A DNA stretch of 64,000 bases. Source: Amanita rubescens. Taxonomy: Eukaryota; Basidiomycota; Agaricomycetes; Agaricales; Amanitaceae. The notes under the pieces are model-generated. The model was not told the origin of the DNA. It ran no database searches and saw nothing but the letters and a program-made list of their open reading frames with translations. Shown here one piece after another: positions 56,526 to 63,088 of this stretch. Position 1 is the first letter of the stretch. Each line of letters opens with the position of its first letter. The DNA lies in contig WION01000121.1 in assembly GCA_015039365.1 (NCBI GenBank), forward strand, positions 1 to 64,000, in the 5' to 3' direction. The translations under genes and the position numbers were made by a program.

Positions 56526-59500
56526 TCATCCACTAACATCAACAGCAATGTGTACCTCTTGACATGTTCCAATCGCCCTCTTCCAAAGGTCATTCGTGCT
56601 CATCGTCCTTCGATCTCCCACAATCACCAATGCGAGCTTCGCCCTCGTCCACATGACGTTCAACCTCCTTGGATCATCTAAAAACCCAATCTCTCCCTCC
56701 GCATTACATCGCACAGTGGAGAATACGATTACATCGCTCTCGCGTCCTTGGAACGCGTCAACGGTTGAACAAACTATGGAGGGTGGCACTCGAGAACGAA
56801 GTTCCTGAATCTGCTTCGTGTACGGCGTGAGGATAGTCACGGTTCGTCCCGATCCTTCGCCATTCTGATTCTTTGTCAGTAGAGGAAGTATCTTCTGAAC
56901 CAGTTCAACTTGTCCGATATTGCTCTTGGATCGTCCGCCCATATCCTCTTCTGTTGAGCACTGGACAAAGATGGTTGGTATAGGAAGGTCTCCGTTCTTT
57001 GGCCAGGGGAATGCCGTAAGCAAGAGGGGTTGCAAAATAGTTGCACTGTCCATGTTGCCCGTCATCAACCGGCCTTCATAGAATTCGCGGGAAGGGAACG
57101 CATTGAGTTCCTGAGAGAACCGGTATTGGACATCGAGCATTGTCTTTCGCATTCCGGGTGTCTCAGCATCGTGGCTATAAAGTCTTTCCAAGAGGGATAT
57201 GTCGACTTGCAGGGCCTTGCCCATATTTTTCACCGTGGGACGTAGTTGGACGCTAGACATTACGGTGAGATGCAGGACGGAATCATGAATCCTTACTCAC
57301 TGATCTCCAACGAGAACAGCTTTCTTAATTCCCTTGACAAGTGGAACTAGGGCCCCTGGTTCGGTGACTTGTGACGCCTCATCAATAATTGCAATGTCAA
57401 AGTCGACGTTTCGGAGGATGCCAAGTCCCGCGCCTAGTTCATTAGCCATCCTATCGTTTAGTTTATGAAATGCACAACGTACCAGCACAGGTAGTGAAAA
57501 TGATGGCTGCGCGCTCAACTCTCTCCTTTGCTTTCTTCATAAGCTTACTATTCTCATTGACATCGCCCCCGACCCTGGCGTCAATCGTATAATTTCTCAA
57601 CGCCTTATTCACCTTCGACTGGTCCGTGGAGACCCGGAGTAGCTGCTCTTCCTCGTTAGGAAGTAGGTGCTCCTCGCGGTTTATTTTAATGAAACGTTCC
57701 AGAACATTGTCAACAGCTAAAGATTCTTGTCAGTATTCGAGCCGGCAGAAAAAGCGTATATCTAACCATTATGGGTCGATGCGGTCATGAGGATTTTGGG
57801 GTGCGTTGCAGTGGCGAGGAATCGACGCAGAATTTGAATAACAACGGTTGTCTTTCCCGTACCTAGGAATAGCTTAGGACGTAACGCCAAAGTGGGCGAA
57901 GATGAAATTACCAGGCGGTCCCCAAATCAGCGATAATTGTGAGGTACAAGAGTTCACAGCTGCCACTTGACTGTCGTTCAAGTCACCTGAGGGTATAAAT
58001 TCAGGTTCTGGGGTTGATTCATCACCAGACGCTTCTGCAGGGGACTCTGCCTCAGCCATCGGCGCTCCGATTATGATATTATAGAATGCGCATGATGCTT
58101 CTTTCTCGGTCAGCAATCGTGTTAATGCATCCATCATGGTCCTCGAATTGGCTATTCCGATATCAAAACCGAATTAACGGATTCGTAGGCAACGACACTC
58201 ACCAACACTCCCAGCATTGTACATGTTCCAGTCGATCTTTTCCATCTCTGGCGGTGGAGGGTGGAATAGTTCTATCTTATATTCGCCAGCATTTGCCTGG
58301 TAGACCACACCATCGAGGACTAATGTTCCAAGCCACTTGTTCTCAGCATGAGAAGCAGCCTTCAACCTGACGTGCGAATGTAGCCTAACTGAGGTTCTCG
58401 CATCGACCCTGACATCTGCCTTGATACGACTTGCGCTCCCTGCTATAAAGTGCAATTTACACTGGGCTGGCGCATTCCGATTGTTGCGTTTGATATTTCC
58501 GTCCGCGTCACATGGACACTCATCTCCAGCCTCTTCCGCTCGTTCAAACGCAATACCGAGAGCATGTTTGTATCCGTACTTCATCGCAGCTTGAATTTCG
58601 GTGGGGATAGATCTATTCATGTGATCGTTCAAGACGAGTAAAACTTCTTGAACGAGCTGCGAAGGGCGGACGGATAGAGCAACTAACATCAGCAATTCGC
58701 AATACTCCTCCAATCCAATGGTGGAAACCGTTCCGGCCATTTTATCGAGAGCGACCAAAGATGCAATACCGTGCTTGTTGGCAGCACGGATGATACATCG
58801 CAGAATAGTTGAGGCAAACGACTCGATGTGGGTATTTAACGTAAACGAGTCATTATAGGGAGGATACACTTTGAGCATAACAAAGGCCAGTTCCGGCAAC
58901 CGATCGAGTAACTTTTCGATCAAACCATGGCGGGGATGGAGAGGCAGTGACGAAATGATCTCGTTGAATAAGAGATAGATTTCCTCTTCAGCGTGATGTT
59001 CAAATGCAAAATCGATGACGCGTTCAATTTCCGCCACCGATTGCAGTGTTGCGATGTAAATCCGTATTGTTCCCTCCGTATGCTTAGTTTCGCGTACGCC
59101 ATCGACAGACGGTATAAACGCGCCCTTCAGATATGGCCATTCTTCATATTTTGACCAATCAACTTCACGGATGTCGTTATAGCGGTATGGTTGGGGTTTT
59201 CGATCAATACGCTTGATAAATTCCTCAGTTGGAACGCTTTGGGAACATCAGTATTGTTACAAGGCAGATGTGCGTCCATATACTCACTGCTCAAACCAAA
59301 GATCAAACAATTGATGCGCGACGCGGTCCCTATTTGAGACCACGTGAAGTTCAATGGCCTTTACCTCAGTACGTTGCACTCGTCCAACTTGCTAGCAGTA
59401 AGATAAGGACAACGTTGGACACTTAGAAAGGAAACTTACCTGCTGCACCGTCTTCGAGATTTTCTGTAGCGCAATACTCGCCGCGACATCTGCACCAGGC

Positions 59501-62309
59501 CATGCTGATGTCATGAAGATGAATGTATCAGCTACGTGCTTATTGTAAAGTTGTAAGTTGACGTCGCTGAAGTGTAATCTGTAACCTGTAGTGCATGGCC
59601 GAAGGGTCGCCTCCGTGGCAGACGTTTGAGGCATGAAGGAACAAACAACGACGTTCTCGTTGACCTCGGGATCCTCATTCCACGCAATAGGTCCACGCAT
59701 AAAGACGCCAACTGCAAAGCGCCCCTCCAGCTTTAACTTTGTATCAGTATCTCGATAGATCGCGACCCATGTCGGTATAGTTACCTGGATGAGCAACAGT
59801 TTCCTAGAGTATTCCTGTGTAGCAATCTTCAGATATTCAAAGAATGTCTTCATGCCATTTGTTTTAGACGAGTATAAGCGCTGGATTGGAAACGGCCTCC
59901 CCAATGACCTTTTGTAGAGATCACGTTCCGTCAGAATGTCAGAACGAATGAGAGAATTCCAAACTTCAGGGTGCTCCTCGGCTGACAGTTCCAAAGTGCT
60001 ACTCATGGCATACTTTTCCGCTATGGTTAATGCCGTAAAGTCGATGTGGCTCAAAAAGGGCGTGAAAGTCAGGTTATGTTTCCGAGCGTAAGTAAGAGCA
60101 AGGTTGAATAGCTCATACTCCGATAAAGCATTTTGTTCGCTTTGCAAAAGACGGATGATCAGCTCTTTCGCATCTTCTGGATCCATCGATCTAAGCGCTT
60201 CCCTGTTATCAGATGAGGCTGCGCGTCTAGCTTGGAATTCTTGAGCGTCCTTCTCTAGTAAGGCTAGAATGAAATCCTCCTTTGGCTCTGGAGGTGTTTT
60301 CAACCGGTCCGGAATCTTAATCCTGCCGCCGTCAACTGCCTTGGAATGCAGAGCATTCAATTCTTGACACTCTGGGCTTAGCGCTCCTTTTTCAGCGCTC
60401 CGAACCCATTTCGCATGAAGAGCTGCAACTCGGGCAACGCCGACACTGGTGACCGTTCACGTCAACAATAACCGACATCAAAAAAACTAGCTTACTTGTT
60501 GTAGGCAGCAAAATAGTTGGCCAAGTCTTCTCGTCTTACCTTCGCGTTACTGTGTTCTTTGTTAGGTGGATAATCGTAGGACTTGGGCCATCATTGAAAT
60601 GGTATTACTTATTGGATAGAAAACTCACCTGTACAACGTAAGGTTGGACTAGGTCTTTATCCCAGCATACAAAATATTCATCGCCTAGGTTACAAGGCTC
60701 GTCAATGGATTTTGGGCAAGTGTAAGAGAAACGAACCGTCGAGATCACCCCCGCTACTCATAGCGGGTGCAGCACGTCGTCCAACTGACGCAAACACAAC
60801 ACAGTCGACGAGATGGGATAGCTTGTTGTTGTGGACGGCCCGAAGTTTCAAGCAGTCACCTTGGTACGCCGTCAAGAAGGGCTCGCGACACAGACGAAGA
60901 CATACCAGGATGTAAACATGGGTTTCTGACTACCAAAACGTCCGCGTTGATTGGCGTGGTTTCCCCTCTCCTCGACACAGTGATCCTGACATGGACCTCT
61001 CCTTCGCGTAACACCCTGTACGGATCACAAACTCCGTAAAGACGCCTCGCGTTGCGTATGATCATCCTGGATTTGAACTTGTCACCTCCTTTCTTGAACC
61101 CTGCGATCTCGGCTGCCTGTGCTCTTGTAACTCGCTGAAAAACCGCAGGGTCATCTAGACCCTTCAGTAAGACATTGTCCGCTAGCTCGTACTGACCAAG
61201 GCAGTATAACATGTCGATAGCCTTGACAGGATCCTCGGATGCAGCCTCGATCCAGTTGAAATATTCTTGTTGCTTCGCCCGAATAGCATCATTTGATACA
61301 CCCAAGCTGGACAAGAGGACTATGACATCGTTGTTTAACCTGCCAAAAACATATGGCTTCGAGTGATTTACGACAGAAAAGCGATGATCGACGTCCGTCG
61401 TGAACTTCTTCATGCTTGCCCTAAAACTTGCTAGATATTTACGTTCGGCATCGAGCTGCGGATGAAGCATCAAAACGCCTTTGTAGCCAAGATATCTAAT
61501 GACAGTCACTAAAGGCAAGTCCTCTGGAGAAGACGACAATCGTACCTAATCTGAAAGACGGTTGGCGTGTACCGCTGTCCTCGATAGATAATGCGCATTT
61601 CTTTGCTTAACTGAATTGCTAAGCGACGACTGATGAGCCCACAACCATCTGAGAATATCTCGTCGCCCGACTTGATATCGGAGATATCACATATATGCTT
61701 TGGATCAAGAGTGTAATCCAGTTCTGCTGCCGAGAACAGCAAACCAATACGTTTGGCACCTAGAGAGGAGGTCGATAAGGGAGCGCATAATGTTGAAGGA
61801 CTGACGTTTTGCCACTATCATAATCTTCCCGAAATCACCGAGTTGATAAATCCGCTCATCGAGCTCTGCGTCGTTGTTTGCTTCTCTGAGGAAGCACGAC
61901 CTTTCTCTCTGAAATTCATGTGAGAAAGCATATACATCGCAAAGATCGCTCCGCTCACCAATTGACTATTGCTATGGTGATAAAATCGATATTGTTTCCC
62001 GTTCAGAAACAAGCCGCTCTTCATAAGCCGTGAGATGTACTCCGAGGTGACACGGATACTCGAATCAGGGAATCTTAGGCCTCCAAACGAGACTCTAATG
62101 AACTTCGATGGGTCATCGGAACGGATAATGCGATTGCTCGATAATTGTTCCATCTGGATCGTGATTTTCTCTGCCGTGAAACTGATACCTTTACCATAGA
62201 TAACCCCTGGTTTGGGGTTACGAGGGAGTGCCAGCGCAGCTGACGGCACCGTGAATCTCCACTCGCTATCCTCTGGTAAAGGGTTCAGTCTCAGATTGTG
62301 GGGGGGCAT
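56526..62309 (-). CDS. RNA-dependent RNA polymerase fused to SF1 (Upf1/Hrr1-like) helicase
   Basis: Fifteen exons, all phase-consistent, give 1698 aa: 62309-61959, 61908-61806, 61759-61546, 61495-60906, 60859-60737, 60684-60629, 60581-60496, 60445-59440, 59391-59288, 59236-58203, 58151-57912, 57862-57767, 57716-57483, 57433-57301 and 57252-56526. Residues 1-550 form an RNAi-type RdRP, with FSDGCGLIS at ~187-195, FQIRYLGYKGVL, and the catalytic DLDGD with Asp at 458, 460 and 462. ALHSKAVDGG near 540 then runs in the same exon into a ~680-residue middle region. Residues ~1280-1690 are an SF1 helicase: GPPGTGKTT (1300-1308), DEASQ (1430-1434), GDHVQLRP (~1455), TVDAFQGRE (~1620) and NVMWTRAK (~1655). 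It should make double-stranded RNA in RNA silencing. The RdRP N-terminus is very short. Confidence 0.85.
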
Positions 62310-62430: not shown

Positions 62431-63088
62431 ATGGCGAACCAGGAAGTTAGTGGGCGCAAAGTCGTATACATCGTCGGACCCTCGGTACGTGTTGACGTGA
62501 TTAGTGGCCTTCATCCATTCAAGACATGCATATTGACTCCAGTCAACGGGCAAGACGACCCTATGCACTGCGTTATCAGAAGTCTTAAACCTTAGTGAGA
62601 CGGCATACGTTACAGAGGTTGCGCGGAAGGTGCTTAAAGAGCGTGGGTATACGCGAAATGATGTCCACCACTTAGAAATGCAGCGGGACATCATGCTCGC
62701 ACATATCCAATCGGAGCGCCTTGCGAGAGACTCGGAAGAGTCTCCCGGTTTGATCCTTTGCGACAGGTCCGCTATAGATGCCATTGTATATGCGATTTTG
62801 ACGGCGGGTGATGATCGGAACGCAAATGACCGTAGGGATCAGCTGATTCGAATGGACGAGTTCCAAGACATTCTTCCTTCGTATCGCCAATCGCTATTTT
62901 TTCTACTGGAACCAGTCGAAGAATGGATCGTCGATGATGGAGTGCGGTCGATAGACAACATATGGGGTTGCTTCGAAACGTTTCAAGCCACCCTTCGGTA
63001 CCTGGGCATCGAGTATCGTGTTATTTCCAAGGAGAATAAGCTTATAGCAGACAGAGTCGCAATTGTAACGAAATTGGTTGGGTCTTGA
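62431..63088 (+). CDS. P-loop NTPase/kinase-like protein (AAA_28 type)
   Basis: Two exons, 62431-62484 and 62543-63088, give 199 aa. Splicing restores the P-loop GPSSTGKTTL, which is split by the intron after GPS. Next come VTEVARKVL, QRDIMLAHIQSERLA, LILCDRSAIDAIVYA (a Walker-B/DR lid-type segment) and WIVDDGVRSIDN. This is the layout of the AAA_28/NadR-like kinase-fold ATPases (PF13521), small enzymes that often act on nucleotides or small molecules; the substrate is unknown. The start is the first ATG after a TATA box. It is transcribed away from the RdRP-helicase with only 121 bp between the starts, so the two may be co-regulated. Confidence 0.8.

What the first reader, a model, noticed from the sequence alone, without database searches (positions are those of the whole stretch)
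56526..62309. RNAi RdRP and SF1 helicase encoded as one polypeptide
Seen: the RdRP C-terminal motif ALHSKAVDGG and the following ~300 residues share one uninterrupted exon (60445-59440). Each of the remaining seven introns keeps phase into a complete Upf1-like helicase. Known: in fission yeast RDRC, the RdRP Rdp1 and the SF1 helicase Hrr1 are separate subunits, and Neurospora SAD-1 and SAD-3 are separate proteins. Inference: a natural fusion of RDRC-type activities that fixes their stoichiometry and says they work on the same RNA. I do not know of a description of this architecture, but it may exist in other mushrooms.
Basis: partly seen in the sequence, partly recalled or inferred. Interest (0 to 1): 0.85.

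Follow-up and report, generated by a model that had tools for sequence, protein, structure and literature searches.

The report
RNAi polymerase fused to UPF1-like helicase
A mushroom gene encodes one long protein that joins an RNA-copying enzyme of gene silencing to an RNA-unwinding motor; the join is real, shared by many fungi and already reported in a Fusarium, but an unexpected domain of another known shape appears to sit between the two halves.

Summary
The fusion is real. Spliced, the minus-strand gene (ATG 62309, stop 56526) reads from an RNAi-type RdRP (PF05183, E 7e-108) into an SF1 helicase with its motifs present. One detail is wrong: exon 60445-59440 hides a 54-nt in-frame intron (59784-59731), so the protein has 1680 residues in 16 exons.

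The architecture is known. Of 349 homologues returned, 181 carry RdRP, middle and helicase; named ones are mostly Agaricomycetes and Pezizomycotina. Fusarium graminearum FgRdRp5 (FGSG_09076) was described with these domains in 2015, and its deletion lowers exonic siRNAs (PMC4515635, PMC11237814).

The RDRC reading is not supported: the helicase is UPF1/Nam7-like (174 bits) rather than ZNFX1/Hrr1-like (91 bits), and the genome has a separate ZNFX1-like helicase.

The parts
61959..62309 (-). exon 1 (start codon at 62309)
   Evidence: A. phalloides P0001 aligns from the same start without an N-terminal gap
61806..61908 (-). exon 2
61546..61759 (-). exon 3
60906..61495 (-). exon 4
60737..60859 (-). 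exon 5 (ends inside the catalytic DLDGD motif)
60629..60684 (-). exon 6
60496..60581 (-). exon 7
59785..60445 (-). exon 8, corrected: RdRP C-terminus (ALHSKAVDGG) into the middle region
   Evidence: 179 of 182 aligned rows lack the 18 residues; the 54-nt form gives the A. phalloides sequence
59440..59730 (-). exon 9, corrected
59288..59391 (-). exon 10
58203..59236 (-). exon 11
57912..58151 (-). exon 12 (ends inside Walker A, after GPPG)
57767..57862 (-). exon 13
57483..57716 (-). exon 14
57301..57433 (-). exon 15
56526..57252 (-). exon 16 (stop codon TGA ends at 56526)
60304..62153 (-). RdRP core, residues 53-555 (PF05183), catalytic DLDGD at residues 458-462
59332..59961 (-). TLDc-like domain, residues about 670-845 of the 1680-aa protein
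   Evidence: on the model of homologue P0119, mapped to the window; weak profile matches; coordinates
58597..59145 (-). helical-repeat region, residues about 891-1073
   Evidence: secondary structure of the models; weak Foldseek armadillo matches, E about 0.03-0.1
56553..58596 (-). UPF1-like helicase module: part before the core from about residue 1074 (barrel, 1B-like), core residues about 1261-1672, Walker A 1282-1289, motif II 1412-1415

Best explanation
The gene encodes a member of a family of two-enzyme RNA-silencing proteins found in Agaricomycetes and Pezizomycotina, the family of Fusarium FgRdRp5. From N to C: an RNAi-type RdRP core without the N-terminal domains of plant RDR2, a TLDc-like domain, a helical repeat, and a UPF1-like RNA helicase. 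Most likely it turns selected single-stranded transcripts into double-stranded RNA for Dicer. The helicase would move on the template, strip proteins and structure and feed or release it; the TLDc-like and helical parts would dock partners. Shown here: one reading frame, conservation, both sets of catalytic residues, and the same ascomycete/basidiomycete split in both halves. Shown by others in Fusarium: deletion lowers exonic siRNAs. Inferred: helicase activity and direction, template feeding, docking, and the role in mushrooms.
Confidence: 0.75

Rival explanations
1. It is an RDRC in one chain: Rdp1-like RdRP fused to the Hrr1/SAD-3-type helicase.
Against: Sequence: Nam7/UPF1 172-175 bits, ZNFX1 91 bits. 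Another gene of this genome (C105/C35) is ZNFX1-like in the one exon tested: ZNFX1 105 bits, UPF1 59. No NFX1-type zinc finger in the window protein at E up to 1. In the helicase tree the fusions form one group with support 87.
Confidence: 0.1
2. Two neighbouring genes joined by wrong gene prediction.
For: No transcript data. Two further copies in the assembly (C19, C731) have frameshifts relative to the window copy.
Against: No stop between the halves; an exon that runs from an RdRP motif into the middle; the same join in 181 of 349 homologues; a published Fusarium gene of the same build.
Confidence: 0.02
3. A surveillance enzyme outside RNAi: the UPF1-like motor picks aberrant or ribosome-bound RNA, and the polymerase part serves decay or rRNA processing rather than siRNA production.
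For: Helicase is UPF1-like by sequence. Ribosome-biogenesis genes are down in the Fusarium mutant and its authors infer a possible role in rRNA processing.
Against: The Fusarium mutant loses part of its Dicer-dependent exonic siRNAs; a separate UPF1 with its zinc domain is in this genome; RdRP catalytic residues are kept.
Confidence: 0.1

Closest known systems
FgRdRp5 (FGSG_09076), Fusarium graminearum
   Same: Same order and similar size (1721 aa, P0286): RdRP, middle, DEAD-like/AAA helicase; a row of the family alignment; described in PMC4515635 and PMC11237814 (passages).
   Different: Ascomycete; the passages read do not mention a TLDc domain. Differences in gene structure were not compared.
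Plant RDR2 / Neurospora QDE-1 (cellular RdRPs)
   Different: No helicase; the modelled homologue starts where RDR2 is at about residue 277 and QDE-1 at about 393.
UPF1/Nam7 helicase
   Same: Closest helicase by sequence and among the closest by fold.
   Different: No UPF1 zinc-binding or UPF1_1B Pfam match at E up to 1; fused to RdRP; a separate UPF1 exists in the genome.
RDRC (Rdp1-Hrr1-Cid12) and SAD-1/SAD-3
   Same: RdRP and SF1 helicase acting in one pathway (recalled; passages).
   Different: Separate proteins; helicase of the ZNFX1/Hrr1 type, not UPF1-like.
TLDc domain proteins (OXR1, NCOA7, mEAK7, TBC1D24)
   Different: Sequence match only weak or absent; no RNA-silencing protein is among those entries.

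Membership tests
RNAi-type (cellular) RdRP | PF05183 domain with DxDGD catalytic motif | tested here: met
   362 bits, cut-off 23.8; Asp 178/179, 180/180, 180/181
RNAi-type (cellular) RdRP | RNA synthesis activity | not testable with these tools
   no biochemistry; only orthologue genetics (PMC11237814)
UPF1-like SF1 helicase | AAA_11 and AAA_12 with motifs I, II, III, V, VI | tested here: met
UPF1 itself | UPF1 zinc-binding (UPF2-interacting) domain PF09416 | tested here: not met
   not among the 23 families listed at E up to 1; present in the genome's separate UPF1
FgRdRp5-type RdRP-helicase | RdRP, middle region, UPF1-like helicase in that order in about 1700 aa, alignable throughout | tested here: met
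RDRC (Rdp1-Hrr1) | helicase nearer to ZNFX1/Hrr1 than to UPF1 | tested here: not met
   (Nam7 175, ZNFX1 91 bits); by proxy ZNFX1, since Hrr1 was not available
RDRC (Rdp1-Hrr1) | complex with Cid12-type nucleotidyltransferase | not testable with these tools
   needs interaction data
TLDc domain | TLDc fold | tested here: met
TLDc domain | sequence profile PF07534 above the curated cut-off | tested here: not met
   3 of 15 slices, best E 0.029; 1 of 8 proteins at E 0.054, 13.9 bits against cut-off 24.5; none in the window protein at E up to 1

The most novel reading that the evidence does not exclude
The family is a distinct class of silencing enzyme, RdRP-TLDc-helical repeat-UPF1-like helicase, inherited since before ascomycetes and basidiomycetes parted. 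Its TLDc-like domain is a targeting module not reported in RNA silencing before, and in mushrooms retention of the weak-donor intron inside Walker A could make a helicase-less form.
Probability: 0.4. Interest if true: 0.65.

Novelty: new member of a known kind. Interest (0 to 1): 0.42.

Why it matters
Fungal RNAi is usually described with polymerase and helicase as separate proteins. A fused form kept with both active sites intact in Agaricomycetes and Pezizomycotina suggests that unwinding and copying of the same RNA are tied in one branch of the pathway. It makes a clean test possible: inactivate one site at a time in one chain. A TLDc-like domain there would be a new lead to where the enzyme sits or what it binds.

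Tried and rejected
Rejected: two-gene artefact (conserved join). Rejected: Hrr1-type helicase, with the limits given under the rival. Rejected: the 18 residues encoded by 59784-59731 as protein (intron). Not counted as evidence of wider spread: record P0136, labelled Acaulospora colombiana, from a 6.7-kb contig; it groups with Serendipita P0107 and the unnamed P0116 in the helicase tree (99), so contamination or transfer is likely. P0168, labelled Salix, is probably a fungal contaminant (my inference from its match).

Led nowhere: profile of the middle against PDB sequences (three chance-level rows, best E 0.77, none TLDc); hhalign of ten slices against a four-sequence TLDc set (the two TLDc-like slices highest, but probability 1.2-1.4% against 0.05-0.55% for the other eight); VIA on the helicase-bearing model, where helicases fill the 50 rows shown.

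Limits: each protein search lists only its best 120 (806, 982 and 203 matches passed the thresholds), so other fungal lineages were not tested. Paper searches were made, in one open-licence library. One search (TLDc domain with RNA-dependent RNA polymerase) gave one firefly-genome paper; none of the ten rows shown held 'TLDc', so it says little. Of the papers opened I read passages only. One mushroom paper (Sanghuangporus, PMC9769868, passages) lists four RdRPs of 807-1198 aa and names only the RdRP domain in them.

Full report
What is there. Pfam places an RNAi-type RdRP at residues 53-555 (E 7.4e-108) and AAA_19/AAA_11/AAA_12 over about 1284-1671. Among PDB sequences the polymerase part is nearest plant RDR2 (164-178 bits; QDE-1 51-59), the helicase part nearest Nam7/UPF1. 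The closest full-length relative is from Amanita phalloides (81% identity), so the window is probably from an Amanita (inference).

A correction. Aligned with relatives, the window protein carries 18 residues in the middle region that are empty in 179 of 182 rows, and the A. phalloides protein reads straight across. In the DNA this is a 54-nt GT-AG stretch without a stop, 59784-59731, which I take as an intron. The continuity of the frame is not affected.

How common it is. Three protein searches (only the best 120 listed in each) returned 349 different proteins, all three queries being family members. Of these, 181 cover RdRP, middle and helicase. By my reading of the species names they include Agaricales, Boletales, Polyporales, Russulales, Hymenochaetales, Auriculariales, Cantharellales and Sebacinales, and Sordariomycetes, Leotiomycetes, Dothideomycetes, Eurotiomycetes, Lecanoromycetes and Pezizomycetes. 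Quick trees of each half (14 rows from either side, 28 of the 182) separate ascomycete and basidiomycete members: 100 for the RdRP; 99 and 92-94 for the helicase, with two unassigned records inside the basidiomycete side. The simplest reading is one fusion before the two groups parted; transfer is not excluded, and the RdRP tree's outgroup is too long a branch to root it.

Prior description. [quoted passage not shown] PMC11237814 (2024, passages) gives the same build and deletes the gene: ascospore discharge falls to 47.6%, antisense exonic sRNAs from 27.3% to 18.91%, and 21-25-nt 5'-U reads by about 32%, the smallest effect of the three RdRPs tested. PMC4870495 (passages) says it may not be critical for hairpin-RNA silencing. 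FGSG_09076 is P0286. So the architecture is in print for one species. My ten paper searches (named under Tried and rejected) showed me no text describing it in mushrooms or as a family; the library is open-licence only and I read passages, not whole papers.

Both enzymes look active. Across 182 aligned rows, where a row has a residue: RdRP Asp 178 of 179, 180 of 180, 180 of 181; Walker A Lys 166 of 168; motif II 169 of 169 and 170 of 171; motif VI Arg 176 of 179. One to fourteen rows have gaps at these sites (one RdRP Asp has two, another three) and are not in the counts; broken gene models around Walker A probably account for its gaps.

How it most likely works. The polymerase copies a chosen transcript into dsRNA for Dicer; the UPF1-like motor on the same chain clears or moves the template; the TLDc-like and helical parts bind partners. 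Only the parts and the Fusarium phenotype are shown; the rest is inference.

A side observation. The window gene has an intron inside the Walker A coding run. In the list 80 of 120 models have an intact GPPGTGKT/S, 21 break after GPPG (13 of them end within 60 residues) and 19 lack GPPG, against 117 of 120 intact in the mostly ascomycete one search list. In the window this intron (donor GTAATT) and the missed one (GTAACT) are the only two of fifteen without G at +5. Wrong or partial gene models are the plain explanation; regulated retention is possible.

Verdict. A real, conserved and probably bifunctional silencing enzyme; already known as FgRdRp5 in Fusarium; the RDRC reading is not supported; the TLDc-like domain and the breadth of the family are the new parts.

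Noticed in passing
window 57863-57911 (intron in Walker A) and homologue list: Many models in the list break or end where the window has an intron inside Walker A (21 of 120 break after GPPG, 13 of these end within 60 residues, 19 lack GPPG; in the list 3 of 120 are not intact). The window's donor GTAATT is weak. Annotation error, or regulated retention giving a helicase-less RdRP.
   Followed up: partly
G000 contigs C19 and C731 (L017, L018): Two further copies of the gene, 99.6% and 99.2% identical in DNA to the window copy. C19 has ten single-base insertions, six coding and four in one intron, most of which look like sequencing errors (one, at 58189, is shared with C731 and may be real), and 13 coding mismatches; C731 has a 4-base coding deletion at a CTTA repeat and 33 coding mismatches. 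Probably haplotypes.
   Followed up: partly
G000:C124 about 200-242 kb and C37: Several Piwi-domain (Argonaute) matches close together.
   Followed up: no
G000:C69, C207, C278 and C343: UPF1-like helicase genes, several in a row on C69/C207/C278; the four rows tested (three of C69, one of C343) form their own group in the helicase tree.
   Followed up: partly
window about 62431-63088, + strand: A divergent reading frame with a P-loop-like motif (read by eye, no domain search) begins about 120 bases upstream of the RdRP-helicase start codon, so the N-terminus cannot extend far and the promoter may be shared.
   Followed up: no
P0136 (Acaulospora colombiana record): A partial fusion protein labelled as from an arbuscular mycorrhizal fungus groups with Serendipita P0107 and P0116; contamination or transfer.
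   Followed up: partly
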